A model generated the notes under the pieces. The model searched no databases, was not told the DNA's origin, and saw only the letters and a program-made list of their open reading frames with translations. A program made the translations under genes and the position numbers. Shown in pieces: positions 24,413-40,066 of a stretch of DNA of 47,612 bases (position 1 is the stretch's first letter; the number at the start of each line of letters is the position of its first letter). Origin of the DNA: Oceanicaulis sp. BBD 1991-10. Lineage in GTDB: Bacteria > Pseudomonadota > Alphaproteobacteria > Caulobacterales > Maricaulaceae. Location: NCBI GenBank assembly GCA_001657295.1, contig LYSW01000029.1, positions 60,224-107,835 on the forward strand, in the 5' to 3' direction.

Positions 24413-24928
24413 TCAATCCCGCCCGGCTGCGCCAGGCCCGCGTGCGGGCTGTGACGCCAGCGGCCAGATGCATTCGAACCGTTCGCACACCACATCAAGA
24501 TCATCAGAGTATTCAAAGCCATGCTGCTCGGCTTCGAGCATGAAGAACCGGCGGTGTTCGGCAAGCCAGTATTCAAGCGAGCGATCACCCTCCCCTTCCG
24601 CATAGGCGAATTCGGCGTCCACATCACAGATCGGCGTCACATCGACCTGCGTGGTGCGGATGATGCAGGCTGGCGCGCCGCGGCCGTCGGTGATCAGGGA
24701 CAGATCGCCCGGCCTGGGCCGAGTGTCCGGATCATACCAACGCGCCAGACTTGTCGTCGCACGCTTTACTCCCGCCAGCACAAGCGCCAGCAATTCATCC
24801 TTCATCGCTTCGCTGTCGCCGAAGGCGTCCATCTCTCTCAGCGCGCCCGCCTGCCCGGTGTCCCGAACGAAGCGCTCCCAAAACGCAGCCTGCGCCGGCG
24901 TCATCGGGTCCCCGACGCGCGGGCTCAC
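24413..24928 (-). CDS. ASCH domain protein
   Basis: This protein of up to 171 residues starts at a GTG (24928) overlapping the stop of the Old Yellow Enzyme gene; an ATG at 24904 is also possible. It matches the ASCH fold of the YqfB/DUF984 kind: KDELLALVLAGVKRATTSL near the N-terminus, RPRPGDLSLITDGRGAPACI, the conserved acidic YAEGEGDRSLEYWLAEHR, and the closing CERFECIWPL. ASCH domains are PUA-like; some members are amidohydrolases acting on N4-acetylcytidine and others are proposed RNA-binding proteins. The C-terminal 14 residues are unrelated to the domain. Confidence 0.85.
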   Translation of the reverse strand: MSPRVGDPMTPAQAAFWERFVRDTGQAGALREMDAFGDSEAMKDELLALVLAGVKRATTSLARWYDPDTRPRPGDLSLITDGRGAPACIIRTTQVDVTPICDVDAEFAYAEGEGDRSLEYWLAEHRRFFMLEAEQHGFEYSDDLDVVCERFECIWPLASQPARGPGAAGRD

Positions 24929-26220
24929 CCCATCACCCTTGCATCGCTCAGCTCCTCAAGCTGATGGGCGATCAGGGCGAGGAGGAGATTCATTTGGCGC
25001 TTGGGCGGCGCGCCCTCGCCGAGGCGGATGATATTGCGGTAGAAAAAGGCCATGGCGGCGAAGCCGTTGGCCGCCTTGATCAAATCGCTGGCCGAATGGG
25101 GGCCCCAGAAGCCCTCGCCCAGCGCCAGATCCGTTTCAAACGCCGGCAGGGCGTCCATCGCGCCGGCAAGCAGCCTTGCGGGCGCGTCGGGCAGGACGCA
25201 GAGCGGACGGCCGATCCCGATCATGGCGACGCCGGCGTCCAGCGCTTCCTCCATGGCGGCCCGGGTGCGAAAGCCGCCGGTGACCATGACCGGCGTGTTC
25301 GCGGCTTTGATCACCTCTTCGGCATAGGCCATGAAATAGGCTTCGCGCGCTCGGGTGCTCTCACGGACCTCGCCGTCGAACACCGGCTCGGTTCCCTCCA
25401 GCCCCATCATGCGCGGCTGCTCATAATTGCCGCCGGAAATCTCCAAAAGGTCGACGCCCTCCTCGTCCAGCATCGCCACGACTTTCAGACAGTCTTCAAA
25501 GCTGAAGCCGCCTTTTTGGAAGTCGGACGAGTTGAGTTTCACGCTCACGGCCTTTCGGGGACCGACCGCCGCGCGGACCGCGCGGATGGTCTCGATCAGC
25601 AGACGCGCGCGATTATCCAGCGATCCGCCCCACTGATCGGTGCGCTGATTGACCAGAGGGTTGAGAAACTCGCTGATCAGATAGCCGTGGGCGGCGTGGA
25701 TCTGGACGCCGTCAAAGCCGGCGTCGCAGCAGGCTTTCGCGGTGGCGGCGAAGCGGGCGATGACCTCGGCGATCTCATCGGCCTCCAGCGCGCGCGGCGT
25801 GGCGAACAGGCCGCCCGGCAGCTTGACCTGTACCGCGGAGGGGCCGACCGGTTCCGGCGCGATCGAAGCCGGACTTTGCCGGCCCGCATGGCTGATCTGA
25901 GCGATCGCGACCCCGCCGCCCGATTTGGCCGCCGCCGCAAAGGCGGACAATCCGGCGACTGCGTGCGCGCTCTGAGGACCGTCGACGACGATGTTGGCGG
26001 GACGCTCGCGATAGCGCCGGTCCACCATGATATTGCCGGTCAGGATCAGGCCGGCGCCGCCTTCCGCCCAGGTGCGATAGGCGCGCGCGATGCGCGCGCC
26101 GGCGACACCGCCGGGTTCCGCCAGGCCCTCGGTCATCGCCGCTTTGCAAAGGCGGTTGGCGATTGCAATCGAGCACGGCAGAGTGAAAGCTGATCCCAAT
26201 TCAGCAGGCATTGGCGGCAT
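24925..26220 (-). CDS. NADH:flavin oxidoreductase, Old Yellow Enzyme family
   Basis: This FMN-binding TIM-barrel protein of about 431 residues has the OYE signature. It includes NRLCKAAMTEGLAEPGG, AIAQISHAGRQS, the substrate-anion pair in GFDGVQIHAAHGYLISEFL, NQRTDQWGGSLDNRARLL, and the phosphate-binding strands PVMVTGGFRT and VAMIGIGRPL. OYEs reduce activated C=C bonds of alpha,beta-unsaturated carbonyls such as enones. Two close ATGs (26220, 26211) could be the start and neither has a strong Shine-Dalgarno. It diverges from a GDSAG esterase/lactonase gene ten bases away and lies 1 kb from the Baeyer-Villiger-type gene, so enone reduction in a terpenoid-ketone route is a plausible inference. 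Confidence 0.92.
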   Translation of the reverse strand: MPPMPAELGSAFTLPCSIAIANRLCKAAMTEGLAEPGGVAGARIARAYRTWAEGGAGLILTGNIMVDRRYRERPANIVVDGPQSAHAVAGLSAFAAAAKSGGGVAIAQISHAGRQSPASIAPEPVGPSAVQVKLPGGLFATPRALEADEIAEVIARFAATAKACCDAGFDGVQIHAAHGYLISEFLNPLVNQRTDQWGGSLDNRARLLIETIRAVRAAVGPRKAVSVKLNSSDFQKGGFSFEDCLKVVAMLDEEGVDLLEISGGNYEQPRMMGLEGTEPVFDGEVRESTRAREAYFMAYAEEVIKAANTPVMVTGGFRTRAAMEEALDAGVAMIGIGRPLCVLPDAPARLLAGAMDALPAFETDLALGEGFWGPHSASDLIKAANGFAAMAFFYRNIIRLGEGAPPKRQMNLLLALIAHQLEELSDARVMG

Positions 26221-26229
26221 CCCAGGACA

Positions 26230-27147
26230 ATGATTGAAACGGTCAGGAAGCGGCCCGGGCTGGGCCTGAGGCGCATGTTCGCCCGGCATCTTGCGCGCCA
26301 GGCGGGTGAGAAGGTGATGGCGCCGGACAATTCCCGTCAACTGGCGCGCGCACGCATCGACAAAGGGGGCGAGCGCTCGCCGATCGCACCTGGGGTCGAG
26401 GTTGGACACACCACGCTCGCCGACCGCCCGGCCCTGCATTTCAAACCGGAGGGCGCCCGGCCCGGCGGCCTTCTATTCTTGCACGGCGGCGGCTATGTCA
26501 TCGGCTCGCCGCAAAGCCATAAACCTTTCGTGTCGCAATTGGCGCACGCTTTGAAGCTGGACGCCTGGTCGCTCGACTACCGCCTGGCGCCGGAGGATGT
26601 CTGCCCGGCCGCCATAGAAGACGGCAGCGATGCGCTGAAGGTGCTCCGTGAACAGATCGATGGCCCGCTCATTGTGTCAGGCGACAGCGCGGGCGGCGGC
26701 CTCACCCTCGCGAGCGTGGTTCGGCACCGCGACGCCGGACGCGCCATGCCGGACGGGCTTTATCTTATTTCTCCGTGGACAGACTTATCTGGATCAGGCG
26801 ACAGCGCCGCCGCCAAGGCGCACGCCGATCCCATGTTGAAACCGCACTATCTCGCCCAGGGCGCCGCGCTCTATCTGGACGGACGCGCCCCGCAGGACCC
26901 GGAGGCGTCGCCGCTTTTCGCCGACCTGTCCGGGCTTCCGCCGACGCTCATTCAGGTGGGTGAAGACGAAATCCTGCTCGATGATTCCACCCGCCTCGCC
27001 GACAAGCTCAAGGCCGCCGGCGTTGATGTGACCTGTGAGGTCTGGCAAGCGATGTGGCATGACTTTCAGCTGTTTGCGCCGCTCCTGCCGGAGGGCGCGG
27101 ACGCCGTTGGTCACGTGAGGCGCTGGGCCGAGACGGCCGTTTTCTAG
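26230..27147 (+). CDS. HSL-family alpha/beta hydrolase (esterase or lactone hydrolase)
   Basis: This 305-residue enzyme has oxyanion motif HGGG at 85-88 (LLFLHGGGYVIGSP), SLDYRLAPED, nucleophile elbow SGDSAGGGLTLA (Ser153), aspartate in VGEDEILLDDS and histidine in MWHDFQLF. The hormone-sensitive-lipase (GDXG) family includes acetyl esterases and monoterpene epsilon-lactone hydrolase. It sits between an Old Yellow Enzyme gene (divergent) and a Baeyer-Villiger-type monooxygenase gene (convergent). That pairing suggests cleavage of the ester or lactone formed by the monooxygenase (inference). The stop shares CTAG with the monooxygenase stop. Confidence 0.9.
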   Translation: MIETVRKRPGLGLRRMFARHLARQAGEKVMAPDNSRQLARARIDKGGERSPIAPGVEVGHTTLADRPALHFKPEGARPGGLLFLHGGGYVIGSPQSHKPFVSQLAHALKLDAWSLDYRLAPEDVCPAAIEDGSDALKVLREQIDGPLIVSGDSAGGGLTLASVVRHRDAGRAMPDGLYLISPWTDLSGSGDSAAAKAHADPMLKPHYLAQGAALYLDGRAPQDPEASPLFADLSGLPPTLIQVGEDEILLDDSTRLADKLKAAGVDVTCEVWQAMWHDFQLFAPLLPEGADAVGHVRRWAETAVF

Positions 27148-28608
27148 ACGTCGGCCACCCAGTTTTCGCGGTCATCGCGCCTGAGCGTCATTGCAAATGC
27201 GGTCGCCAGGCCGGACCAGTTATTGGTGATCACCCCGTCTTCGGTCTTGTACCAGCTCGGACAATCCTCGGCCCAGACGGTGCGCTGGAGACGGGCCTGG
27301 AGCACGTCGTTGAAGGCGGCTTCAGCTTCCGGCGCCACCGAAAGCGCCTTGAGATCCGCCTTCAACAGCCAGTTAATCTGTCTACTGACATATTCGGTTT
27401 GGCGCTCCAGCATGAAGATGATGGAGTTGTGGCCCAGATTTGTGTTCGGCCCGTAGAGCATGAAGAGATTGGCGAAGCCGCTCACCGCCACGCCGCGATA
27501 GGCGCGCGGGTTCGCCCCCCAGGCGTCCTTGAGCGTGCGCCCATCGCCATTCTCCACCTGCAGGGTCGGCAGGAAGTCGGTGGTCTGAAACCCGGTGGCG
27601 AAGACGAGGATATCCGCCTCGATCTCCTCGCCAGAGCTGGTCATGAGGGTGTTCCCAGCAACCTTGACCAGTCGATCGGAAACCAGCCGGACATCGCCGC
27701 GCTGCATGAGCTGGAGATAGTCATTGGACAAAAGGATGCGTTTGCAGCCCGGCGCATAGTCCGGCGTCAGTTGAGCGCGCAGCTTCTCATCCTTAACCGC
27801 CTTGCGGATCAGGGTTTTCAGCCGCCAATGGGTGTAGGCGCTCGCCAATGAGCGCGACACGAAGGCGGGATAGCGCAGCTCATGGATGAGATAGCTGAGG
27901 GTGCGGTAGAGCCGATGCCAGCCCGGGATGTGGCGGAAAGCCCATCTCTCTATCCGCAAAAACGCCCGGTCCGGCTTGGGGATCACCCAGTTAGGAGTCC
28001 TGGCCAGAACAGTGAGGTGCTCTGACTCTGCGGTTAGCTTGGGCAGGAGCTGAACCGCGCTCGCCGCATTGCCGATCACCGCCACGCGCTTGCCGGAGAA
28101 TTTGATGCCGTCGTCCCAGTCTGCGCTGTGCAGCACCGGGCCGTTGAATGTCTCGAGTCCGTCGACATCCGGCGTGAAGGGCTCGGAGAGTTGCCCGACG
28201 GCGCTGATCACCGCCCGGGCCATGAGCTCAGCGCCGTCGGCGAAGCGCACACGCCAGCGCCCCGTCTCGGCGACGAACTGCATCGCCTCGACCGTGCGCG
28301 CGAACGCCAGATGCTCGCGCAGCCCGAAGGCGTCGGCGGCGCGTTCCAGATAGGCGAGGATTTCGGACTGGGGCGAGAATTTCCGGCTCCAGTCCGGATT
28401 CAAAAAGAAGGAGTAGGAATAAAGATGGCTCGGCACGTCGCACGCGGCGCCGGGATAGTGGTTGGCGCGCCAGACCCCGCCCACGCCATCGGCGCGATCA
28501 ACGATGGCGAATGCGGACAGGCCCGCCTGCTTGAGCTGGCGGCCCATGGCGAGGCCGGCGAAGCCGGCCCCGATGATCAGGACGTCAAGCGCGGGCGGAA
28601 GCGCCGCC

Positions 28609-28628
<20 letters not shown>
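27144..28628 (-). CDS. Flavin-binding monooxygenase, Baeyer-Villiger type I-like
   Basis: This 494-residue protein has two Rossmann motifs. The FAD site is LIIGAGFAGLAMGRQL (GAGFAG at 20-25), and the NADPH site is VAVIGNAASAVQLLP. Between them lies FNGPVLHSADWD, corresponding to the Baeyer-Villiger fingerprint FxGxxxHTxxW(P/D) with Ser for Thr. GVWRANHYPGAACDVPSHLY and ILVFATGF are further family marks. Such enzymes insert oxygen next to ketones to give esters or lactones. The start overlaps the acyl-CoA ligase stop by 20 bases, making it the last gene of the atu-like operon. A simple N- or S-hydroxylating FMO is the alternative. Confidence 0.9.
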
Positions 28629-30438
<1,810 letters not shown>

Positions 30439-30451
30439 GCGTGTCCTCCCC

Positions 30452-31309
30452 TCAGTGTAATCCCATGAGTTCGCGCGCTTCTTGAGGGCACGCCACGTCG
30501 CGGCCCGCATTGCGCGCGCAGCGCGCCAGCGCCTCGATGAGCGCGCCATTGCCCGGGGCGCGGTCGCCGTCCGGGAGATAGAATGTGTCCTCCAGACCGG
30601 TGCGCAGCATGCCGCCCAGCTCCGCCGTGCGCTGATGCACCGGCCAGATTTCGGCCCGGCCGATCAGCGTGGTCTGCCAGGGATCGCCCTCGCGCTTATA
30701 GCGCAGCAAAAGCTCGAGCAGGTCCGCGTCGACCGGCATGCCCGAAGCGACGCCCATCACGAAATTATAATGGGCCGCCGGCGCCATGCCGTTCTCGATA
30801 TACATATTCACGCAGCGCACGATGCCGACATCGAAGCATTCAAATTCAGGATGGGCGCCGACTTCATTCATGGCGTCGACCATGGCCTGAACCTTCTCGA
30901 CCGGATTGTCGAACATCATCGGCGGCCAGGCCCAGGACCCGTCGCGTTTCAGCTTAAGATAGTTCAGCGAGCCGGCGTTGCACGCCGCGATCTCCGGCTT
31001 GACCCGCTTCACGCAGGCGACGGGGCCGGACACGTCCGGGCCGACAATGCCGGTGGTGGAGTTGATGATCACGCCCGGGCAAGCATCGCGGATGGCCTCG
31101 ACAATGGCGCCGGCCACGTCCGGATCCCAGCTGGGAAATCCGCCATGGTCGGGCTCCTGCATGCGGTAGTGCACATGCATCACGCTGGCGCCGGCGTCAA
31201 AGGCCTCGCGTGCGCTCGCCGCCATCTCCTCCGGCGTCACCGGCACGGGATGGGTCTTCGGATTGGTCAGCACGCCATTGAGCGCGCAGGTGAGTACGGC
31301 CTTCGTCAT
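30452..31309 (-). CDS. BKACE-family enzyme (DUF849, beta-keto acid cleavage)
   Basis: This 285-residue TIM-barrel protein has the Zn-binding pair H45-x-H47 in SVMHVHYRMQEP. The family marks are CALNGVLTNP at the start, INSTTGIVG, HPEFECFDVGIVRCVN and HYNFVMGVASGMP. BKACE enzymes (type: Kce, 3-keto-5-aminohexanoate cleavage enzyme) condense a beta-keto acid with acetyl-CoA and split it to acetoacetate plus a new CoA thioester. HVHYR replaces the more usual HxHxRD. I prefer the internal ATG at 31309, giving MTKAVLTCALNG. It lies four bases after the biotin carboxylase stop, inside the atu-like operon where AtuG sits in Pseudomonas. The substrate is unknown. Confidence 0.9.
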   Translation of the reverse strand: MTKAVLTCALNGVLTNPKTHPVPVTPEEMAASAREAFDAGASVMHVHYRMQEPDHGGFPSWDPDVAGAIVEAIRDACPGVIINSTTGIVGPDVSGPVACVKRVKPEIAACNAGSLNYLKLKRDGSWAWPPMMFDNPVEKVQAMVDAMNEVGAHPEFECFDVGIVRCVNMYIENGMAPAAHYNFVMGVASGMPVDADLLELLLRYKREGDPWQTTLIGRAEIWPVHQRTAELGGMLRTGLEDTFYLPDGDRAPGNGALIEALARCARNAGRDVACPQEARELMGLH

Positions 31310-31313
31310 CGCT

Positions 31314-33284
31314 CTAATCCTGAGACTGCAAATCAAGTTCAATCAAGACAAATCCGCCGGACGCCTGCTCGCCTTGCGCAGCATGCACTGCAGCAACAAC
31401 GCCGTCGGCCTGCGCGGTCAGGCGCATCTCCATCTTCATGGCCTCCATCACGGCGACCACGTCGCCGGCGGAAACCGCGTCGCCAGGCGCGACATTGATC
31501 GCGACGACCGCGCCGGAGACGGGCGCGATGATGGTCGAGGGATCGGCTGCGTCCACATCGCTCCAGGGCGACGCTTCAGCGACGAAGACCATGCGATCGC
31601 CCAGCGCGATGTGACGGCCGCCTTCGTCGTCCAGACGGACCAGGCGCGCCTGCCTTCCTTCGCCGTTCAGCGTGTAGGACGTCCGGCTGTGACCGGCCTC
31701 GTCGAAGACGATCTCTAACGGCGCCTCGCCGTCCAGGATGCGGACGCCGCCGCCGCGCAGCTGCTCCACCGCGATGCTTTGCGGCTTGCCGTCCACCAGC
31801 AGATCCAGGGTGATGTGGCGCACGGACGGGGAGCGGTGGACCTCGTCATAGGTCGCGGTGGCGTCCGCCGCCGCCAGCGCGATCGCCTCAAAGGGCGGCT
31901 CGGCGGGCGCGAAGGGGCCTGAGCCAGCCTCCGACCAGATATCAAGATCGGCTGTGCGCACTTCGCCCGCCGCGAAGACCGGGTCGTCGAGCAGCCGGAT
32001 CAAGAAATCGCGATTGGTGCGGACACCGAGCAGCGGCGCGTCGATCATGTGCGCGCGCAGCGCGGCGATCGCCTCACCGCGCGACGGCGCGTGGGCGATC
32101 AGCTTTGCGACCATGGCGTCATAATCCGTGCCGACGACGCTGAACTGATCGACGCCGCTATCAACCCGCACGCCGCCGGCGACGCCGTGGGGATTGTACG
32201 CCAGGACCCGGCCGGACTGGGGGGCGAACGCGTTGAAGGGGTCTTCCGCGTAGAGCCGCAGCTCAATGCTGTGGCCCTCAAGGGTCACCTCATCTTGCGC
32301 CATCGGCAGCGGCTCGCCTGACGCGATCGCGAACTGCCACTGAACCAGATTGGTCCCGGTGATTTCCTCGGTGACCGGATGCTCCACCTGGAGCCGGGTG
32401 TTCATTTCCAGGAAATAGTATTCGCCCGCATCGTCGAGCAGGAATTCGACCGTGCCGGCGCCGACATAGTCGACCGCTCTGGCCGCGGCGACCGCATCCG
32501 CACCCATGCGCGCGCGCAGGGCCTCGTCCACGGCCGGCGAGGGCGCTTCCTCGATCACTTTTTGACGGCGGCGTTGCGCGGAGCAATCGCGTTCTCCCAG
32601 GTGGATCACGTTTCCGCGGCTGTCGGCGAAGACCTGGATCTCCACATGGCGGCCGCGCTCGACAAAGCGCTCCAGCAAAACCGCGTCATCGCCAAAGGCG
32701 GACCGGGCTTCTCGGCGCGCAGACGCCAGCGCGTCGTCGAATTCGCCCGCCTCACGCACGATGCGCATGCCGCGGCCGCCCCCGCCGGCGACGGCCTTGA
32801 TCAGCAGCGGATAGCCGACCTGGTCAGCCTCGGCCTTCAGGTTCGCGTCGGACTGATCTTCGCCTTGCCATCCCGGCAGGGCGGGCACCCCGGCCTCGAT
32901 CATCAGCGCCTTGGCGCGCGCCTTGTCGCCCATGGCTTCAATCGCCTCCGGCGGCGGACCGATCCACACCAGCCCGGCCTGGATGACGGCGCGGGCGAAT
33001 GCGGCGTTTTCCGACAGGAAGCCATAGCCGGGATGGATCGCTTCAGCGCCGGTCTCGCGTGCAGCGTCCAGGATCGCGTCGATATTCAAATAGCTCTGCG
33101 CCGCCGGCGCCGGACCGATCCACACCGCCTGATCCGCTTCGCGGACATGCAAGGCGGTTTCGTCAGCGTCGGAATAGACTGCGATGGCGCGCATCCCGCC
33201 GGCGCGGGCTTCCTTCAGCACCCGCACAGCGATCTCGCCGCGATTGGCGACCAGGACGGAGGCGAAACCGCCGGTCAGCATCAC
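31314..33284 (-). CDS. atuF: Biotin carboxylase/BCCP subunit of an acyl-CoA carboxylase (AtuF/MccA-like)
   Basis: This 656-residue protein has an N-terminal biotin carboxylase domain (SVLVANRGEIAVRVLKEA, ATP-grasp loop IKAVAGGGGRGMRI, LGERDCSAQRRRQKVIEEAP, EMNTRLQVEHPVTE). A linker BT-like domain and the biotinyl domain follow, with the acceptor lysine in EAMKMEM at about residue 617. It carboxylates biotin with bicarbonate and ATP. Domain order and length fit MccA/LiuD, PccA and AtuF. Because its partner carboxyltransferase looks AtuC-like, the alpha subunit of a geranyl-CoA carboxylase is the favoured reading. A GC-rich repeat separates it from the hydratase gene upstream. Confidence 0.9.
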   Translation of the reverse strand: MMLTGGFASVLVANRGEIAVRVLKEARAGGMRAIAVYSDADETALHVREADQAVWIGPAPAAQSYLNIDAILDAARETGAEAIHPGYGFLSENAAFARAVIQAGLVWIGPPPEAIEAMGDKARAKALMIEAGVPALPGWQGEDQSDANLKAEADQVGYPLLIKAVAGGGGRGMRIVREAGEFDDALASARREARSAFGDDAVLLERFVERGRHVEIQVFADSRGNVIHLGERDCSAQRRRQKVIEEAPSPAVDEALRARMGADAVAAARAVDYVGAGTVEFLLDDAGEYYFLEMNTRLQVEHPVTEEITGTNLVQWQFAIASGEPLPMAQDEVTLEGHSIELRLYAEDPFNAFAPQSGRVLAYNPHGVAGGVRVDSGVDQFSVVGTDYDAMVAKLIAHAPSRGEAIAALRAHMIDAPLLGVRTNRDFLIRLLDDPVFAAGEVRTADLDIWSEAGSGPFAPAEPPFEAIALAAADATATYDEVHRSPSVRHITLDLLVDGKPQSIAVEQLRGGGVRILDGEAPLEIVFDEAGHSRTSYTLNGEGRQARLVRLDDEGGRHIALGDRMVFVAEASPWSDVDAADPSTIIAPVSGAVVAINVAPGDAVSAGDVVAVMEAMKMEMRLTAQADGVVAAVHAAQGEQASGGFVLIELDLQSQD

Positions 33285-33314
33285 GCCCTCCCCTCAATGC
33301 GAACGCGAAAAATG

Positions 33315-33423
33315 TCTCCCCCGGCTTGCGGAGGGCGCGTCCTGAAGCGACGAGGGGGGCATTGCGGCGTTGCAAAGCCCCCTCCGCCCGTTTCACGGAC
33401 GCCTCGCCTGCAAGCGGGGGAGG
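33315..33423. repeat. GC-rich palindromic intergenic repeat, copy 2
   Basis: This is a 109-base relative of the element at 14361-14469, in the same orientation and of the same length. It starts TCTCCCCCGGCTTGCGGAGG and ends CTGCAAGCGGGGGAGG. Shared internal blocks are CCTGAA, AGGGGG, TGC..CG, GCCCCC and GGAC. The left hairpin is more decayed than in copy 1. It occupies the 160-base gap between two genes of the atu-like operon, so it is transcribed and could form a processing or attenuating structure. Confidence 0.72.
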
Positions 33424-33444
33424 CCACCGGTGTCACCACAGGCC

Positions 33445-34251
33445 TCATTCGCTCACCGCCCACTTGGCGGGGCGTTTTTCGATGAAGGCGGTCATGCCTT
33501 CCGCACCCTCGTCGCTGCGTACGGCGGCCGTGAAGACCTCGGCGGCATGACCGATCAGGTCCGCCGGCTCGGCGTTGCGGCCCTTGCGCAAGAGGCGCTT
33601 GGTGGCGGCCACCGCGTTCGGCGCGCATTTTCGGATGTCCTGCATGACCTGGATGAGGCGGGCCTCCGTCTCCTGCACCCCGTCACAGAGGAAATGCACC
33701 AGACCGATCTCCAGCGCCTCCTGCGCCGTCACCTCGCCGCCGGTGACCGACAGGCGCTTGGCTTGGGAATAGCCGAGCCGTTCCAGCAGGAAGGGCTCGA
33801 TCTGCGCCGGCACGAGGCCCAAACTGGTCTCCGGCAGGCGGAAGACGGCGGTCTCCCGCGCAATGGTCGCGTCGGCCACGCAGGCCAGGCCGAAGCCGCC
33901 GCCCATCACCGCGCCTTCCACCACCGCCACGATGGGCAGATCGGACGCGCCGTAGATCGCGCACATCTGTCCAAAGCGGGTGGACACCTCGATGATCGGA
34001 TCGGTTTCGCCGCCGCCGGGCGGCGGCGCGCTCATATCCTTGATGTCCCCGCCCGAGCAGAAATGCCCGCCCGCGCCTTGAAGCACCACCATGCGCGCGC
34101 CGGTTTGCTGCGCCTCGTCAAGCGCGGCGATGAGCTCGCGCACCATCTCCAGCGACATGGCGTTGCGGCTTTGCGGACGATTGAGCGTGACGAAGGCCGC
34201 GCCGTCGCGGCGCTCGAAGAGCAGGGTGGCGAAGTCCGTCATCTCAGGCAT
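33445..34251 (-). CDS. atuE: Enoyl-CoA hydratase/isomerase family (AtuE-like isohexenylglutaconyl-CoA hydratase)
   Basis: This crotonase-fold protein of about 268 residues has the oxyanion-hole motifs HFCSGGDIKDM and EGAVMGGGFGLACVAD, and the active-site glutamate in RLPETSLGLVPAQ. The position of the first catalytic Glu of classic hydratases is Gly (GGGFGLA). GLVPAQIEPFLLERLGYSQA resembles AtuE, which hydrates isohexenylglutaconyl-CoA, and also LiuC. The start is taken at the ATG at 34251, overlapping the acyl-CoA dehydrogenase stop; an in-frame ATG at 34242 is equally possible. The longer frame to 34326 is antisense-like sequence within the upstream gene. Confidence 0.87.
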   Translation of the reverse strand: MPEMTDFATLLFERRDGAAFVTLNRPQSRNAMSLEMVRELIAALDEAQQTGARMVVLQGAGGHFCSGGDIKDMSAPPPGGGETDPIIEVSTRFGQMCAIYGASDLPIVAVVEGAVMGGGFGLACVADATIARETAVFRLPETSLGLVPAQIEPFLLERLGYSQAKRLSVTGGEVTAQEALEIGLVHFLCDGVQETEARLIQVMQDIRKCAPNAVAATKRLLRKGRNAEPADLIGHAAEVFTAAVRSDEGAEGMTAFIEKRPAKWAVSE

Positions 34252-35419
34252 TGCCCGCCGGCGCGGACGGCTTGCGTTTGGGCAAAGTGCCTTCCAGCTT
34301 GGCGATGATGCCGAGCATGATCTCATCGGCGCCGCCGCCGATGGAGACCAGACGTCCGTCGCGGTAGGCCCGGCTGATCGGATTGTCCGCCGTATATCCC
34401 ATGCCGCCCCAGTATTGCAGGCAGCTGTCCGCGATCTCGCGCGCCAGGCGGCCGGTCTTCAGCTTGGCCATGGAGGCCAGCTTGGTGACGTCCTTGCCCT
34501 CGTTGAATTCCTCCACGCAGCGATAGACCAGCGAGCGCAAGAGCTCGACCTCGGTGCGAAGCTCGGCGAGGCGGTAGTGAATGACCTGGTTGTCGAGCAG
34601 GGACTGGCCGAACGCCTTGCGCTCGCGCGTATAGTCGATGGTCAGGTCGATCTGCCTGTCGAAACTCTTCAGCGAAGAGGCGGCGCCATAAATGCGCTCC
34701 TCCTGGAATTGCAGCATCTGGTATATGAAGCCCGCGCCTTCATCGCCGATCAGATTGCGCTTGGGCACCCGGACCTCGTCGAAAAAGATCAACGCGGTGT
34801 CGGAGGAATGCATGCCGATCTTGTCGATCTTCTGCCGTTCAATGCCCGGCGCATCCATGGGCACCATGATCAGCGATTTGTTCTCATGCGCCTTGCCTTC
34901 GGACGTGTTCGCAAGCAGGCAGCACCAGTCCGCTTTCAGGCCATTGGTGATCCACATCTTCTGACCGGAGATGACATAATCCTCGCCATCGGACTTCGCC
35001 GTGGTTTTCACCGCCGCGACATCCGATCCGCCGCCCGGCTCGGACACGCCCAGGCAGCCGACCACGTCGCCGGCGATCGCCGGGGCGAGGAATTCGTGAC
35101 GCAACGCGTCAGACCCGAAGCGCGCGAGCGCCGGCGTGCACATATCGGTATGAACCCCGATCGCCATGGGCACGCCGCCGCAATTGATCAGGCCCAGCTC
35201 CTCGGCCAGCACCAGGGAGTAGGACATGTCCAGGCCGGCGCCGCCGAACTCCTCCGGCCAGCGCAGCCCGAGAAGACCCAGATCGCCCATCTTCTTGAAG
35301 ACCTCATGGGAGGGAAATTCGCCGGCGGCTTCCCACTCCTCCACATGGGGGTTGATCTCGTTGGCGACGAATTTGGCGACCGTGTCGCGGAGCTGGTCGT
35401 GTTGTTCGGTGAACTGCAT
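34244..35419 (-). CDS. atuD: Acyl-CoA dehydrogenase (AtuD-like citronellyl-CoA dehydrogenase)
   Basis: This 391-residue FAD enzyme has the ACAD signatures CLGVSEPGGGSDVAA, KMWITNGLKADW, IDYTRERKAFGQ and QYWGGMGYTADNPISRAYRD. The stretch GVPMAIGVHTDMCTPALARF strongly recalls AtuD. At the C-terminal site where most ACADs carry the catalytic Glu, the sequence is SIGGGADEIM. The base is more likely the glutamate in QFQEERIYGAA, as in isovaleryl- and long-chain acyl-CoA dehydrogenases, which fits a branched substrate. The predicted reaction is oxidation of citronellyl-CoA or a similar isoprenoid acyl-CoA to the 2-enoyl-CoA, with electrons passed to ETF. It follows the carboxyltransferase gene by 25 bases. 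Confidence 0.9.
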   Translation of the reverse strand: MQFTEQHDQLRDTVAKFVANEINPHVEEWEAAGEFPSHEVFKKMGDLGLLGLRWPEEFGGAGLDMSYSLVLAEELGLINCGGVPMAIGVHTDMCTPALARFGSDALRHEFLAPAIAGDVVGCLGVSEPGGGSDVAAVKTTAKSDGEDYVISGQKMWITNGLKADWCCLLANTSEGKAHENKSLIMVPMDAPGIERQKIDKIGMHSSDTALIFFDEVRVPKRNLIGDEGAGFIYQMLQFQEERIYGAASSLKSFDRQIDLTIDYTRERKAFGQSLLDNQVIHYRLAELRTEVELLRSLVYRCVEEFNEGKDVTKLASMAKLKTGRLAREIADSCLQYWGGMGYTADNPISRAYRDGRLVSIGGGADEIMLGIIAKLEGTLPKRKPSAPAGNA

Positions 35420-35444
35420 GGCGGGTCTCCTGGTCGGGCGGGCG

Positions 35445-37055
35445 CTAGAACCGCGCCACCCCGAATGTGTTGGGGTTGAGCTGACGGGCCTCGCCCTCAG
35501 CGCAGATGGTCAAAGCTTCAATGAGCACGGCGCGGGTGTCGCGCGGATCAATGACGCCGTCGTCCCACAGCCGGGCGGACGCGAAGAGCGGCTGGGACTG
35601 ATCATCCAGCGTCGCCGTGATCATCGCCGTCATGTCGCTGAGCGCTTTTTCGTCGGTCTCAATCCCCGCGCGGGCGTTTTTGCCCCGCGTGACGATCTCC
35701 ATCACCTTGGCCGCCTGGGCGCCGCCCATCACTGCGGTGCGCGCGGTCGGCCAGGCGAATATGAAGCGCGGGTCAAAGCCGCGCCCGCACATGCCGTAAT
35801 TGCCCGCGCCGAAGCTGCCGCCGAGGACGATGGTGATCTTCGGCGCGCGCGCATTGGCGACCGCCTGGATCATTTTCGAGCCATGCTTGACCGCTCCGGC
35901 GCGCTCGGCCTCGGATCCGACCATGTAGCCGGTGGTGTTCTGCAAAAAGACGATCGGCGTTCTGGACTGGTCGCAGAGTTGAATGAACTGACCCGCCTTG
36001 GCGGAGCCGTCCGGCTGGATCGGGCCGTTATTGCCGATGATCCCGACGATCTGAGACCCGATGCGGGCATGGCCGCACACGGTCTCGGCGCCGAAGCGCG
36101 CCTTGAACTCCAGAAAGTCGGACTCGTCGACGAGGCGCGCGATCACCTCGCGCACGTCATAGGGCGTCCTGTCGTCGGCGGGTACGACGCCCATAAGCTC
36201 TTCCGCGTCATACCTGGGCGCTGCGCCGTCATAAGGCGCGGTCGCTTCATCCCAGTTCAGCTTGTCCATGATCTCGCGGGCATAGGCCAAAGCCTGCGCG
36301 TCGTTTTCGGCGACATATTCGCCAAGGCCGGTCACCTCGCCATGCAGATCGGCGCCGCCCAGGCTTTCGTCATCGGCGTCTTCACCGATGGCGGCCTTCA
36401 CCAAGGGCGGTCCGGCCAGAAAGATTTTCGACTTCTCGCGGACCAGGACGACATAATCGCTCATGCCCGGCAGATAGGCGCCGCCGGCGGTCGATGAGCC
36501 GTGCACGACGGCGATCTGCGGAATCCCCGCCGCGGACAGGCGCGCCTGATTGGCGAAGCTGCGTCCGCCATCCACAAAGATCTCGGACTGATACAGGAGA
36601 TTCGCGCCCCCTGACTCCACCAGGTGGATCATGGGCAGCTTGTTGACGAGCGCGATCTCCTGGGCGCGCAATGATTTTTTCAGCCCCATGGGCGCGACCG
36701 TGCCGCCTTTGATGGCGCTGTCGCTGGCGGCGACGACGCAGCGTTTGCCGCTGACCACGCCGACGCCCACGACCGCGCCGCCGCCGGAGGCGCCGCGCCC
36801 GCCGTCATCGTCATGCATCTTCCAGCCCGCAAGCGGCGCGATCTCCACAAAGGGTTGGTCGCGGTCGACCAGGCGCGCCACCCGTTCGCGGGGCAAGAGC
36901 TGGCCGCGCTCTTCAAAGCGGGATTTCTTGGCCGCGGAATTGCCCCGCACTTGGGCTTCGGCCGCGTGGATTTCGGCGAGCTTGTCCGCCATCGCGGCGG
37001 CGGCGGCTTTAAACGCGTCCGAGGCCGGGTTGAGGCGGGAGGTCAATTCAGGCAT
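35445..37055 (-). CDS. atuC: Carboxyltransferase subunit of an acyl-CoA carboxylase (AtuC-like geranyl-CoA carboxylase beta)
   Basis: This 536-residue protein has the two carboxyltransferase half-domains. Characteristic blocks are SGGANLLYQSEIFVDGGRSF, VHGSSTAGGAYLPGMSDYVV, LGGADLHGEVTGLGEY, then VGIIGNNGPIQPDGSAKAGQ, LQNTTGYMVGSEAE, and the FGAGNYGMCGRGFDPRF glycine-rich motif. The segment ASDSAIKGGTVAPMGLKKSL differs from LiuB (methylcrotonyl-CoA) and looks like AtuC. It would transfer CO2 from biotin to the methyl branch of a cis-geranyl-CoA-type substrate. It overlaps the SDR gene by eight bases at its start. Methylcrotonyl-CoA carboxylase remains the alternative. Confidence 0.9.
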   Translation of the reverse strand: MPELTSRLNPASDAFKAAAAAMADKLAEIHAAEAQVRGNSAAKKSRFEERGQLLPRERVARLVDRDQPFVEIAPLAGWKMHDDDGGRGASGGGAVVGVGVVSGKRCVVAASDSAIKGGTVAPMGLKKSLRAQEIALVNKLPMIHLVESGGANLLYQSEIFVDGGRSFANQARLSAAGIPQIAVVHGSSTAGGAYLPGMSDYVVLVREKSKIFLAGPPLVKAAIGEDADDESLGGADLHGEVTGLGEYVAENDAQALAYAREIMDKLNWDEATAPYDGAAPRYDAEELMGVVPADDRTPYDVREVIARLVDESDFLEFKARFGAETVCGHARIGSQIVGIIGNNGPIQPDGSAKAGQFIQLCDQSRTPIVFLQNTTGYMVGSEAERAGAVKHGSKMIQAVANARAPKITIVLGGSFGAGNYGMCGRGFDPRFIFAWPTARTAVMGGAQAAKVMEIVTRGKNARAGIETDEKALSDMTAMITATLDDQSQPLFASARLWDDGVIDPRDTRAVLIEALTICAEGEARQLNPNTFGVARF

Positions 37056-37944
37056 CGCCGCCGCCTCCGCGCAACACCTCCGGTTCGACCGCGCGGTGAA
37101 AGCCGTTGAATATCTCGGACTTGTCGTGGTCTTCCAGCGGCCAGTGACGTCCGCCGAGCGGGGCGCCGCCGTCGACCTGCAACTGAACGCCGGTGATGAA
37201 GGCGGCGGCGGGCGATAGGAGGAAGGTCACGGCCGCGGACACTTCCGCTTCCGAGCCCAGACGCTGCGCCGGCAAATGCTGTTTGAGATAGGGGATCATC
37301 GCGCGCGCCGAGCCGCCATAGGTGTCCATGCCCGAGCTGGCGATCCAGCCGGGCGATACGGCGTTCACCCGCACGCCATGTTTGCCCCATTCAAAGGCCG
37401 CGGTCTGGGTGAGGTTCGCCATGCCCGCGCGCGCGGCGCCGGAATGCGCCATGCCCGGCATGCCGCGATGCATGTCCGCGGTGATGTTCACGATCGCCCC
37501 GCCATGCGCCTTCATCGACGCGTTGAAGACGGTGCGCATCATCTGCCAGCCGCCCGTCAGATTGGTCGCGATCACCGCATCCCAGCCCTTTTTGGAGATA
37601 TCGGCGACCTCTGCGGGAAATTGTCCGCCGGCATTGTTCACCAGCCCATGGATGCGGCCGTGGCGTTCGACCATCGCGGCGACCCCGTCGAACACCGCCG
37701 CGTCGTCACGGATGTCGAAGCTGGCGGTGTCGGCCCGGCCGCCGTCTTCGGTGATTTCCGCAGCGACGGCGTCCAGCTTGTCCGCCTTGCGGCCGACCAG
37801 GATCACCAGTGCGCCCAGCGACGCCAATTCATGACCAATGCACCGGCCGATGCCGGATCCGCCGCCCGTGACCACGATCACCCGTCCATGGAACAGGCCG
37901 GGTCGAAACACGCTGTCATAGCGAGCGGTCGCCAAGTCTGTCAT
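37048..37944 (-). CDS. Short-chain dehydrogenase/reductase, AtuB-position, resembling trans-2-enoyl-CoA reductase
   Basis: This 298-residue protein has nucleotide motif TGGGSGIG at 26-33, LVNNAGGQFPAEVADISKKG and TNLTGGWQMMRTVF. At the usual YxxxK site the sequence is AHSGAARAGMANLTQT, with no Tyr. This HSGAARAG motif is that of peroxisomal trans-2-enoyl-CoA reductase, and the surrounding blocks (GQF..ISKKGW, MKAHGGAIVNI, LLSPAAAFITG) agree as well. It therefore probably acts on enoyl-CoA thioesters rather than alcohols. AtuB homologues in databases are labelled citronellol/citronellal dehydrogenase. It is the first gene of the operon; a GGGAGGAG lies about twelve bases before the ATG. Confidence 0.88.
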   Translation of the reverse strand: MTDLATARYDSVFRPGLFHGRVIVVTGGGSGIGRCIGHELASLGALVILVGRKADKLDAVAAEITEDGGRADTASFDIRDDAAVFDGVAAMVERHGRIHGLVNNAGGQFPAEVADISKKGWDAVIATNLTGGWQMMRTVFNASMKAHGGAIVNITADMHRGMPGMAHSGAARAGMANLTQTAAFEWGKHGVRVNAVSPGWIASSGMDTYGGSARAMIPYLKQHLPAQRLGSEAEVSAAVTFLLSPAAAFITGVQLQVDGGAPLGGRHWPLEDHDKSEIFNGFHRAVEPEVLRGGGGDA

Positions 37945-38026
37945 GGATGATCCCGTCTCCTCCCTGACCGGCCCGGCGCTTAGAGCGCTCTGATCTGTCC
38001 GGCCACGCCGCCACCCTCCCCTACGC

Positions 38027-38040
38027 TGACGTATACGTCA
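38027..38040. promoter_or_regulatory. Perfect palindrome, candidate MerR/LiuR-type operator
   Basis: TGACGTATACGTCA is a perfect 14-base palindrome containing ACGT-AT-ACGT, the type of site proposed for LiuR-like MerR regulators (from memory). It lies 61 bases before the MerR gene and 83 before the SDR gene start, in their shared divergent promoter region. Confidence 0.65.
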
Positions 38041-38045
38041 AGCAA

Positions 38046-38061
38046 CTCTTGTTAACGAGAG
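38046..38061. promoter_or_regulatory. Second, imperfect palindrome in the same divergent region
   Basis: CTCTTGTTAACGAGAG has seven of eight pairs matching, centred on GTTAAC. It is nested within outer GCAACT/AGTTGC arms (38042-38047 and 38064-38069). It overlaps the -35-like element of the MerR gene, a good position for autoregulation. Confidence 0.4.
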
Positions 38062-38077
38062 AAAGTTGCGCTTATCT
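38049..38077 (+). promoter_or_regulatory. Candidate promoter of the MerR-family regulator gene
   Basis: TTGTTA at 38049-38054 and TTATCT at 38072-38077 are separated by 17 bases. This predicts a start point near 38084, a short leader and the AAGGAA ribosome-binding site before the ATG at 38101. Only motif spacing supports it. Confidence 0.4.
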
Positions 38078-38100
38078 GAGGGCGGGGAAGGAATCTGACC

Positions 38101-38505
38101 ATGGCCGACGGCGCGACAGCCCGGGACGAAATCTACGGCATCGCCGAGCTGGCCGAGCGTCATGGCGTGACCCAGCGCACCATTCGCTTCTATGAAGACA
38201 AGGGCCTGATGAGTCCACGCCGGGTGGGCGGCCAACGGGTCTATACCGAGTTTGATTCCAAGCGCTTGGGGCTGATCCTGCGCGCCAAGGCGATCGGCAC
38301 GAAGCTGGCCGACATCAAAACCTTTCTTGAGCTCTATGGCCGCGAAGGTGAAGGCCGGATCCAGCAGCTGGAATTCGTCATCGACATGACGGCCAAGGAG
38401 ATCGCCAAGCTGGAATCCAAGCGCGACCAGATTGACGCCACGCTGGAGGAATTGCGCCTGATCCATGAAGGCTCCAAGGCGCGGCTCGCGAAGCGGCGCG
38501 TTTAG
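38101..38505 (+). CDS. MerR-family transcriptional regulator (LiuR-like), divergent from the atu-like operon
   Basis: This 134-residue protein has an N-terminal MerR winged helix-turn-helix at about residues 12-80: IAELAERHGVTQRTIRFYED, KGLMSPRRVGGQRVYTEFDS, RLGLILRAKAIGTKLADIKT. A C-terminal dimerisation coiled coil follows (EIAKLESKRDQIDATLEELR). There are no cysteines, so metal or redox sensing as in MerR/SoxR is excluded. The layout matches LiuR, which controls branched-chain acyl-CoA degradation genes and is thought to respond to a pathway acyl-CoA. The P. aeruginosa atu cluster is instead controlled by a TetR-type AtuR. AAGGAA precedes the ATG by about nine bases. Confidence 0.92.
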   Translation: MADGATARDEIYGIAELAERHGVTQRTIRFYEDKGLMSPRRVGGQRVYTEFDSKRLGLILRAKAIGTKLADIKTFLELYGREGEGRIQQLEFVIDMTAKEIAKLESKRDQIDATLEELRLIHEGSKARLAKRRV

Positions 38506-38614
38506 CCGCAGCTGGTGGAAATCCGACCGGACCGCCACAACTCCGCCACATCCGCTGACCAGCTTTCACGTTGGAGGATCATGGGCCGCGGCTCCCGCGG
38601 CGCTGGGAGGATGC

Positions 38615-40066
38615 GTGAGATTCGGTCTGATTGCAGGGCTCGGCGCAGCCTTCCTTGCGCTCGGCGGGTGTTCGCAGGACACCGCCGCCGGAGCACGCGA
38701 CGCGGCGACGGTCACCACCGTCTCCATGGAGCCGGCGGCCGTCATGGAACGCTGGGAGAGCGAACTCGGCGGCCGGTATCGCGCCGCCGCGGCGCTGGAG
38801 GAAGCCGAGTTCGTCGAAGCCTGGGACGCGGATCTGGCCTTCTGGCAGGCCGAGCTGGAAGTGACCGGCGCCGGTCCGGTCGATTTTGAACGCACCCGCT
38901 ATGAATGGGCGTTCGGACGGATGCTCTATCCGGTCCTGCACGCCCGCCTGACCGGTCAGCCGCGCGAACAGCCGAGCGAGGGCTATCACGCCTATCTCGA
39001 CAAGATCGAGCTGGAGCGCCCGGACCTCCTGGAGCTTGAGGAATACACCGGCTTCATCGAAACAATGGCGGAGATGAGCGCAGACGAGATCTTCGAGGCG
39101 CCGGATTTCGAAGGCGCGCTCGGCGCGCTCTATCTCGACGCGCGGCTGGCGGCCGCCGAACAGTTCGAAAATGACGCGGTGCGCTGTCATTTGCAGGCCG
39201 GCGTATTTGATTACTGGCTCGAGTCCTTTGACGGCCAGGGCGCCCAGACTCAGCTGCAGGCCTTCGCCCAGGACTGCCCGGGCGAGCGGACCGCGGCGAT
39301 CCTCGCCGCCTTCGCCGAGGAATACTCAATGCAGCAAGGCCGACGCGTTGAAGTCTACAAGACCGTCGAGGGTTATGGCCTTGAGATGCATATATTCCAC
39401 CCGGACGATCACAGCGCCGAAGACGCGCGTCCGGCGGCGCTTCACTTCCATGGCGGAGGCTGGTTTTTCGGCAATTGGACCTGGTGCGGCCCCTGCCGCT
39501 TCTTCAAGGAGCGCGGCCATGTGGTGATCCAGGTGGAGTATCGAGTCCGCGGCCGGTTCCGCACGCGGGCCGGCGACAGTCTGGAGGATGTCGGCGACGC
39601 CGTCGCCTGGGTGCGCGCCAACGCCGACCGGCTTGGCGTCGATCCGGACCGCATCGCCGCCATCGGCTTCTCCGCCGGCGGGCATTTGTCGATGACCTCG
39701 GGGGCTTTGCAGGCGCCGGGCGATCCCCGGCGGCCGGACCTTGTCGCCGCCTTCTCCGGCTGCGCCGCCATGGACGACACCGATTACACGATCCGGATGG
39801 CCGGCGGCATGGAGGAAGCCGTGCGCCTGTCGCCTGTGCGGCTGGACGCTCCCAGCTCTCCGCCGATCTTCTTCGCCAATGCGCGCCGCGACACGGATTG
39901 TGATTTCGCGACCGTCGCTCAATACGCCGCCAATCTAGAAGCCAACGGCAACACCGTCCGGCTTCACGATGGCGGCGAGCGCGGGCATTTCTTCATGCGC
40001 GACCCTGAGGCGGCCGCCGCGGTGCACGCGGATCTTTACGCCTTTCTGGACGCCCAGGGCTGGTGA
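38615..40066 (+). CDS. Lipoprotein alpha/beta hydrolase (HSL/acetyl esterase type), GTG start
   Basis: This 483-residue protein starts at GTG 38615, with GGGAGG four bases upstream. It begins with a lipoprotein signal (FGLIAGLGAAFLALGGC, Cys19). Residues 35-260 are an acidic helical region of unknown fold. The C-terminal half is an alpha/beta hydrolase: HGGGWFFGNWTW (oxyanion, around 279), EYRVRGRFRTRAGDSLEDVG, nucleophile GFSAGGHLSMTSG, aspartate in ANARRDTDCDF and histidine in GERGHFFMRD. Its motif set is close to secreted BD-FAE/acetyl-xylan-esterase-like enzymes. The large N-terminal extension is unusual. It follows the MerR gene by 109 bases and could be expressed separately. Confidence 0.83.
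   Translation: MRFGLIAGLGAAFLALGGCSQDTAAGARDAATVTTVSMEPAAVMERWESELGGRYRAAAALEEAEFVEAWDADLAFWQAELEVTGAGPVDFERTRYEWAFGRMLYPVLHARLTGQPREQPSEGYHAYLDKIELERPDLLELEEYTGFIETMAEMSADEIFEAPDFEGALGALYLDARLAAAEQFENDAVRCHLQAGVFDYWLESFDGQGAQTQLQAFAQDCPGERTAAILAAFAEEYSMQQGRRVEVYKTVEGYGLEMHIFHPDDHSAEDARPAALHFHGGGWFFGNWTWCGPCRFFKERGHVVIQVEYRVRGRFRTRAGDSLEDVGDAVAWVRANADRLGVDPDRIAAIGFSAGGHLSMTSGALQAPGDPRRPDLVAAFSGCAAMDDTDYTIRMAGGMEEAVRLSPVRLDAPSSPPIFFANARRDTDCDFATVAQYAANLEANGNTVRLHDGGERGHFFMRDPEAAAAVHADLYAFLDAQGW

What the first reader, a model, noticed from the sequence alone, without database searches (positions are those of the whole stretch)
24413..38505. Candidate isoprenoid/terpenoid-ketone catabolic island built on an atu-like operon
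Seen: SDR, carboxyltransferase, acyl-CoA dehydrogenase, hydratase, biotin carboxylase, BKACE, acyl-CoA ligase and Baeyer-Villiger-type monooxygenase in one minus-strand run (37944-27144), mostly with overlaps or gaps under 30 bases. Beside it lie a GDSAG hydrolase and an Old Yellow Enzyme, and a MerR regulator reads away at the head. Known: the order atuB-C-D-E-F-G-H of the acyclic terpene pathway (citronellol/geraniol via geranyl-CoA carboxylase). Inference: ene-reductase, oxygen insertion, ester or lactone hydrolysis and CoA ligation form an upper pathway that delivers an isoprenoid acid to the Atu core. I do not know of this combination described as one unit.
Basis: partly seen in the sequence, partly recalled or inferred. 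Interest (0 to 1): 0.72.

Follow-up and report, generated by a model that had tools for sequence, protein, structure and literature searches.

The report
Terpene-breakdown operon with swapped cleavage enzyme
A conserved bacterial gene cluster looks like a pathway for breaking down terpene-like ketones, and comparison across many bacteria suggests that one key cutting enzyme of the classical terpene pathway has been replaced by an unrelated enzyme, which can be tested in the laboratory.

Summary
Window 37944-27144 (minus) is an atuB-C-D-E-F-like operon followed by BKACE, an acyl-CoA ligase and a type I BVMO, with a divergent MerR gene at its head and a hydrolase and an optional Old Yellow Enzyme at its foot. 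The carboxyltransferase is of geranyl-CoA-carboxylase type, not LiuB. The block without OYE recurs in 16 of 17 fetched relatives of four genera; OYE in 8 of 17. A palindromic operator lies between MerR and the SDR; the genome's only other site with at most one mismatch precedes an acyl-CoA dehydrogenase pair.

The more general point: the operon lacks AtuA and carries a BKACE. In 116 carboxylase loci the two are never together (58 BKACE, 26 AtuA, 32 neither), with at least three switches on the carboxylase tree. In 299 genomes of the order this BKACE subfamily is in exactly the 40 with the matching carboxylase. AtuA's modelled fold matches citramalate lyase. I infer that BKACE with an HMG-CoA lyase replaces AtuA. 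The ketone upper pathway is plausible, its substrate unknown; p-menthane ketones fit the chemistry best. A new variant of a known kind.

The parts
38101..38505 (+). MerR-family regulator, divergent from the operon
   Evidence: PF13411 63 bits; at the locus in 17 of 17 family relatives
38026..38042 (-). operator CTTGACGTATACGTCAG between MerR and SDR
   Evidence: CTTGACGTATACGT exact in 17 of 18 aligned intergenic regions, one base different in L054; between MerR and SDR in 14 of 15 genus genomes, reversed-pattern control 0 at up to 1 mismatch
37048..37944 (-). SDR, AtuB-like
   Evidence: 6LLN 'putative dehydrogenase involved in catabolism of citronellol' 364 bits; 60-63% to the SDR beside CT in nine Pseudomonas loci
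35445..37055 (-). geranyl-CoA carboxylase-type carboxyltransferase (AtuC-like)
   Evidence: 5IKL 701 bits vs 3U9R 523; tree; Gly163, no MCC insertion
34244..35419 (-). acyl-CoA dehydrogenase, AtuD-like
   Evidence: Pfam ACAD domains; 67-68% to nine Pseudomonas genes in the atuD place
33445..34251 (-). enoyl-CoA hydratase, AtuE-like
   Evidence: PF00378; NF004227 gamma-carboxygeranoyl-CoA hydratase 144 bits, below its cut-off of 426; 44-48% to Pseudomonas cluster genes
31314..33284 (-). biotin carboxylase/carrier subunit (AtuF position)
   Evidence: PF02786, PF00289, PF02785, PF00364; similarity does not separate AtuF from LiuD (47-48% to both)
30452..31309 (-). [quoted passage not shown]
   Evidence: PF05853 268 bits; HxH and RxGxED patterns in 58 of 58 cluster BKACEs; phyletic match with the carboxylase
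28609..30438 (-). acyl-CoA ligase, resembles long-chain types
   Evidence: PF00501 and AMP-binding_C_3; best NCBIfam FadD11 415 bits, below its cut-off 950
27144..28628 (-). type I Baeyer-Villiger monooxygenase
   Evidence: FNGPVLHSADWD at residue 161 and GCKR at 294; best PDB steroid monooxygenase 4AP3
26230..27147 (+). HSL-family hydrolase (HGGG, GDSAG), convergent with the BVMO
   Evidence: PF07859 190 bits; motifs in 17 of 17 relatives; best PDB EstD11
24925..26220 (-). Old Yellow Enzyme-family ene-reductase, divergent from the hydrolase; optional
   Evidence: PF00724 165 bits; HxxHGYL in the window and 8 of 8 relatives; at the locus in 8 of 17 relatives

Best explanation
A MerR-controlled (perhaps LiuR-like) catabolic operon that strips the 3-methyl branch from an isoprenoid acyl-CoA by the Atu chemistry (dehydrogenation, carboxylation of the 3-methyl group by a geranyl-CoA-carboxylase-type enzyme, hydration), but handles the next C-C cleavage without AtuA. 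Inferred steps: the genome's HMG-CoA lyase splits the 3-hydroxy-3-alkylglutaryl-CoA into acetyl-CoA and a free 3-oxo acid, and the BKACE then re-activates it by its known type of reaction (3-oxo acid + acetyl-CoA gives acetoacetate + shortened acyl-CoA; recalled). In this family of bacteria a BVMO, a hydrolase, a ligase and often an ene-reductase feed the core: enone reduced, ketone turned to ester or lactone, hydrolysed, oxidised by the SDR, activated. A p-menthane ketone such as menthone would give a 3-methyl-branched hydroxy acid that needs exactly this core; a plain isoprenoid methyl ketone would give a 4-methyl acid that does not. Shown: gene content, kinship of the core, conservation, operator, BKACE-carboxylase association, exclusion of AtuA at the loci. 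Inferred: every reaction and the substrate.
For: GCC-type CT; AtuB/AtuD-like neighbours in atuBCDEF order, same as L134. Block conserved in four genera. Operator between MerR and SDR in 14 of 15 genus genomes; in the window's genome two sites with up to 1 mismatch, the operon and an ACAD pair; 9 of 15 genomes show the second site, all 9 upstream of an orthologue of the large ACAD, the small one also seen in 8 (L174 is cut short). BKACE/AtuA: 58 / 26 / 0 both / 32 neither in 116 loci, at least 3 changes forced by starred branches; BKACE subfamily in 40 of 299 order genomes, exactly the 40 with CT at 57% or more, 33 of 40 within 8 kb; in a phylum draw all 16 BKACE genomes are among the 43 of 398 with a CT at E <= 1e-162. 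AtuA profile and AtuA model match citramalate lyase 9ERQ/9EVF. One HMG-CoA lyase in the genome, over cut-off.
Against: No activity, induction or growth data. 32 of 116 loci have neither AtuA nor BKACE (13 of them under 13 kb), and 15 of 17 such genomes tested have no BKACE of this subfamily, so the step can be done some other way. Of 55 BKACE genomes two also hold a full-length AtuA elsewhere (G412, G422) and two a partial match over the Pfam cut-off (34 and 32 bits, G516, G625). The HMG-CoA lyase lies on another contig (C38) and not under one of the two strong operator sites. OYE and hydrolase have no strong operator site of their own; OYE is missing from 9 of 17 loci. No BVMO orthologue was seen in the fetched flanks of the 80 named loci (best 28%), so BVMO and BKACE novelties are separate. 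The operator is not general: with up to 2 mismatches it was found in 14 of the 80 named loci.
Confidence: 0.55

Rival explanations
1. The core degrades ordinary acyclic isoprenoid acids (citronellol, geraniol, farnesol or phytol type), and the BVMO, hydrolase and OYE are a neighbouring ketone or lipid module with no link to it.
For: Cores like this occur in other bacteria without a BVMO in the fetched flanks; hydrolase is on the other strand and OYE diverges from it; OYE optional; the ligase resembles long-chain types and stands next to BKACE in L065, L075, L085 and one gene away in L101.
Against: BVMO overlaps the ligase gene by 20 bases in the same run and its orthologues occur only in genomes with this core (18 of 18 among 299); hydrolase at the locus in 17 of 17.
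Confidence: 0.3
2. BKACE is not the AtuA replacement but acts on a beta-keto acid made elsewhere in the pathway; the exclusion only reflects lineage.
For: About three switches on the tree; 32 loci with neither.
Against: Switches occur inside the window's own order and in Tahibacter (L115, L118) among AtuA-bearing relatives, there with a different gene order; 40-of-40 match in 299 genomes.
Confidence: 0.25
3. A leucine (liu) operon variant.
For: Same enzyme classes; MerR regulator as in LiuR regulons (PMC5343134, passages).
Against: CT apart from MCC, no MCC insertion; four relatives examined have a separate LiuB-like locus (L193-L196); the window's genome has a second MCC-like CT split over two contig ends.
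Confidence: 0.03

Closest known systems
Acyclic terpene utilisation (atu) cluster of Pseudomonas, atuABCDEFGH
   Same: B-C-D-E-F in the same order; GCC-type carboxylase; compared with L134 and other Pseudomonas loci
   Different: No atuA, no second SDR (atuG) in the run, MerR not TetR regulator, BKACE added, BVMO/hydrolase/OYE added
Leucine/isovalerate utilisation (liu) operon with LiuR
   Same: Reaction logic and MerR-type control
   Different: Carboxylase type; MCC-like genes are elsewhere in the genome
Carvone/limonene route of Rhodococcus erythropolis DCL14 (reductase, monoterpene ketone monooxygenase, epsilon-lactone hydrolase, CoA activation; PMC4097962, passages)
   Same: Same four kinds of activity as proposed for OYE, BVMO, hydrolase, ligase here
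   Different: No branch-removing carboxylase step is given for it in the passages seen; orthology of the enzymes not tested
BKACE family (PF05853, DUF849)
   Same: Family and zinc-site patterns
   Different: A subfamily (59% or more to the window's in all 58 cluster cases) found with GCC-type carboxylases; best solved relative only 126 bits

Membership tests
atu cluster | Carboxyltransferase of GCC type (Gly, no 3-residue insertion) | tested here: met
atu cluster | atuB-C-D-E-F orthologues in order | tested here: met
   the biotin carboxylase alone is not resolved from LiuD; no trees for SDR, ACAD or hydratase
atu cluster | AtuA (PF07287) | tested here: not met
   (no control rang); again none, where 7 of 7 genomes with a known AtuA rang
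atu cluster | Second SDR AtuG in the operon | tested here: not met
atu cluster | AtuH-type ligase | tested here: inconclusive
   a ligase is present; its best family is FadD11 below cut-off; no AtuH reference compared
atu cluster | TetR regulator AtuR | tested here: not met
   MerR instead; AtuR as TetR from PMC4847356 (passages)
atu cluster | Growth on citronellol/geranic acid | not testable with these tools
   -
liu operon | MCC-type carboxyltransferase | tested here: not met
BKACE | PF05853 over cut-off and zinc-ligand motifs | tested here: met
   HxH and RxGxED patterns in 58 of 58; residue roles recalled
BKACE | Beta-keto acid + acetyl-CoA activity | not testable with these tools
   -
type I BVMO | FxGxxxHxxxW(P/D) fingerprint (recalled) | tested here: met
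   window exact; FxGxxxHxxxW in 17 of 17 rows, final P/D in 11 of 17
LiuR regulon | MerR regulator with the LiuR operator | tested here: inconclusive
   MerR and a palindromic operator found; no LiuR tree made, no published motif compared
p-menthane ketone lactone pathway | Enzymes orthologous to MMKMO and epsilon-lactone hydrolase | not tested
   reference sequences not at hand

The most novel reading that the evidence does not exclude
There are two Atu pathways in nature. In one, AtuA, a citramalate-lyase-like enzyme, releases acetate and leaves a 3-oxoacyl-CoA. In the other, found here in named alpha- and betaproteobacteria and in Tahibacter, an HMG-CoA lyase makes the free 3-oxo acid and a dedicated BKACE re-activates it, giving acetoacetate. 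The window carries the second kind, extended by a Baeyer-Villiger entry for terpenoid ketones.
Probability: 0.45. Interest if true: 0.7.

Novelty: new variant of a known kind. Interest (0 to 1): 0.55.

Why it matters
The enzyme for the 3-hydroxy-3-isohexenylglutaryl-CoA cleavage is assigned differently in print: AtuA in PMC4847356 (passages), LiuE in PMC4097962 (passages). The AtuA/BKACE exclusion and the AtuA-citramalate lyase fold match make that question directly testable, propose a role for a BKACE subfamily, and point to terpenoid ketone degradation in a bacterial family for which my searches found no such report (open-access library only).

Tried and rejected
Leucine operon: rejected. 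AlmA-like role of the BVMO: AlmA of Acinetobacter baylyi is reported as a BVMO on aliphatic ketones (passages of PMC12449030; the primary paper PMC10807437 is not held); no AlmA reference sequence was compared, so left open. Acyclic methyl ketones (geranylacetone, 6,10,14-trimethylpentadecan-2-one) as substrate: by hand chemistry they give 4-methyl acids that do not need the carboxylase; disfavoured, not excluded. Salvage of 6-methylhept-5-en-2-one from a decarboxylated 3-oxo acid: disfavoured because the BKACE clusters of the named loci show no BVMO orthologue in the fetched flanks. ASCH (24413-24928) and the BD-FAE-type hydrolase (38465-40066): no match in any of 20 relatives' neighbourhoods, dropped. 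Operator hits with 3 mismatches were ignored: at that level the reversed-pattern control gave 8 hits against 9 real. Literature (open-access library only, listings seen): 0 papers hold both 'geranyl-CoA carboxylase' and 'Baeyer-Villiger monooxygenase'; none of the 23 listed has a DUF849/BKACE term together with an Atu term; none of the 8 holds 'citramalate lyase'; one search gave 3, all reviews by title or abstract.
Full report
Observation. The genes 37944-27144 form one minus-strand run with short gaps, apart from about 160 bases before the biotin carboxylase. Likely start corrections: OYE 26211 or 26220, hydratase 34251, BKACE 31309, ligase 30438. The hydrolase is convergent with the BVMO and divergent from OYE.

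Is the core Atu or Liu? The carboxyltransferase scores 701 bits with geranyl-CoA carboxylase beta (5IKL) and 523 with methylcrotonyl-CoA carboxylase beta (3U9R). Jurado et al. (PMC4673880; passages seen) give as diagnostic a Gly in GCC against Phe in MCC plus a three-residue insertion in MCC. The window has Gly163 and no insertion. Gly is kept in 117 of 118 GCC-type sequences aligned (Ala in L125); the insertion is absent from the ten GCC-type rows printed there (window, 5IKL, eight loci), and present in 3U9R and in four of four LiuB-like loci by pattern. In a tree of 103 sequences (quick method, SH-aLRT only, no bootstrap) MCC and the four LiuB-like genes split from all GCC-type rows at 100. 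The SDR's best solved structure is a putative citronellol-catabolism dehydrogenase, 6LLN. ACAD is 67-68% identical to the gene in the atuD place of nine Pseudomonas loci, and the gene order SDR-CT-ACAD-ECH-BC is the same in L134. The biotin carboxylase is about equally similar to both kinds (47-48%), so it does not help. No trees were made for SDR, ACAD, hydratase or biotin carboxylase.

Conservation. I fetched neighbourhoods of 20 relatives of the order. Of the 17 with a carboxyltransferase at 75% or more (four genera), all 17 have MerR, SDR, CT, ACAD, BC, BKACE, ligase and hydrolase; 16 have hydratase and BVMO (L054 lacks both); 8 have OYE at the locus. The three more distant ones (59-61%) show no BVMO or ligase match. 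BVMO orthologues at 56% or more exist in 18 of 299 genomes, all within the 19 that carry the close CT.

Regulation. The MerR-SDR spacer holds CTTGACGTATACGTCAG at window 38026-38042. CTTGACGTATACGT is exact in 17 of 18 aligned regions; L054 differs by one base. In the window's genome two sites have at most one mismatch: this one and one directly before an acyl-CoA dehydrogenase pair (L153 9549-7228), which resembles pimeloyl-CoA dehydrogenase large and small subunits below those families' cut-offs. Sites with three mismatches are no better than the reversed-pattern control. In 15 genomes of the genus, 14 have at least one site with up to one mismatch and the control found none (G300, 1.7 Mb, has none). 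All 14 lie between MerR and SDR; 9 genomes also have the second site, in all 9 before an orthologue of the large dehydrogenase, with the small one seen in 8. So the predicted regulon is the operon plus that pair. LiuR, a MerR regulator of branched-chain amino acid use, may be a relative (PMC5343134, PMC7238569; passages), but I compared no published motif. In the 80 named loci a site with up to 2 mismatches was found in 14, so the site is not general.

BKACE and AtuA. The classical cluster begins with atuA. PF07287 was not found in the window's genome (where no control rang) nor, where 7 of 7 genomes with a known AtuA rang. I took 80 named loci with a GCC-type CT, the 20 relatives, and 16 more GCC-type loci from the order (which also fetched four LiuB-like loci). 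Of these 116 loci 58 have BKACE, 26 AtuA, none both, 32 neither; 13 of the 32 are under 13 kb and say little. On the CT tree the label changes at least three times, all forced by starred branches (quick trees with long rows are less sure): the main BKACE clade, a second BKACE clade in the window's order next to AtuA-bearing rows of the same order, and Tahibacter (L115, L118), where BKACE sits upstream of CT. The BKACE subfamily (61% or more to the window's) is in 40 of 299 order genomes, exactly the 40 with CT at 57% or more; 33 are within 8 kb of CT, six on other contigs, one 83 kb away. In 398 genomes of the phylum 16 have it, window's included, and all 16 are among the 43 with a CT at E <= 1e-162, a threshold I chose; 15 of 16 lie within 5 kb of the CT, read off. 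Chance for independent draws is about 2e-17, but genomes are related, so this is only a guide. Against: of 55 BKACE genomes 51 have no AtuA, two have a full-length one (G412, G422) and two a partial match over the cut-off (G516, G625); of 17 genomes behind 'neither' loci, 15 have no such BKACE.

What AtuA is. A profile of 20 AtuA proteins matches 9ERQ/9EVF, 'AtuA family protein / citramalate lyase subunit A', E 9.7e-6; three RecA entries came at similar E-values but with no stretch passing on its own, and I take them as spurious. An AlphaFold model of AtuA from L134 (mean pLDDT 82) has 9EVF, a citramalate lyase with ADP and pyruvate, as its only Foldseek match with E at most 0.001 (E 8.9e-23, 17% identity). 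Citramalate lyase cleaves a hydroxy acid to pyruvate and an acetyl product (recalled), which suits the acetate-releasing lyase step that PMC4847356 gives to AtuA (passages), while PMC4097962 gives it to LiuE (passages).

Mechanism proposed (inference). HMG-CoA-lyase-type cleavage of the branched hydroxyglutaryl-CoA releases acetyl-CoA and leaves a free 3-oxo acid; BKACE chemistry (3-oxo acid + acetyl-CoA gives acetoacetate + acyl-CoA; reaction recalled, family substrate groups in passages of PMC4922564) re-activates it. AtuA plus thiolase would reach the same shortened acyl-CoA another way, hence the exclusion. The genome has one HMGL-like match, an HMG-CoA lyase by NCBIfam (298 bits, cut-off 246), on another contig.

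Upper pathway (inference). OYE, BVMO, hydrolase and ligase match the four kinds of activity of the carvone route of R. erythropolis (PMC4097962, passages). Menthone by that route would give 6-hydroxy-3,7-dimethyloctanoate, whose 3-methyl branch needs the GCC core (by hand chemistry). Catalytic motifs are intact: BVMO FxGxxxHxxxW in 17 of 17 rows, final P or D in 11 of 17; hydrolase GDSAG 17 of 17 and OYE HxxHGYL 8 of 8 relatives. Substrate unknown.

Verdict.

Noticed in passing
G000:C33 (L153) 9549-7228: An acyl-CoA dehydrogenase pair under the same operator as the operon; site and large subunit together in 9 of 15 genus genomes; probably part of the pathway.
   Followed up: yes
L106, L107, L110, L111, L113, L117, L121, L124, L125, L140: GCC-type loci with neither AtuA nor BKACE, several with two tandem ACAD genes; how they do the cleavage step is unexplained.
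   Followed up: partly
L134 7274-9115: AtuA's modelled fold matches citramalate lyase (9EVF, with ADP bound), which suggests an acetyl-releasing lyase that may use a nucleotide.
   Followed up: yes
G000:C57 end and C39 end: A second MCC-like carboxyltransferase (likely LiuB) is split over two contig ends, probably only by assembly.
   Followed up: no
window 38465-40066: A BD-FAE/Peptidase_S9-like hydrolase overlapping the end of the MerR gene, without a match in the relatives' neighbourhoods.
   Followed up: no
L115 and L118 (Tahibacter): BKACE cluster with a different gene order among AtuA-bearing relatives; looks like an independent switch.
   Followed up: partly
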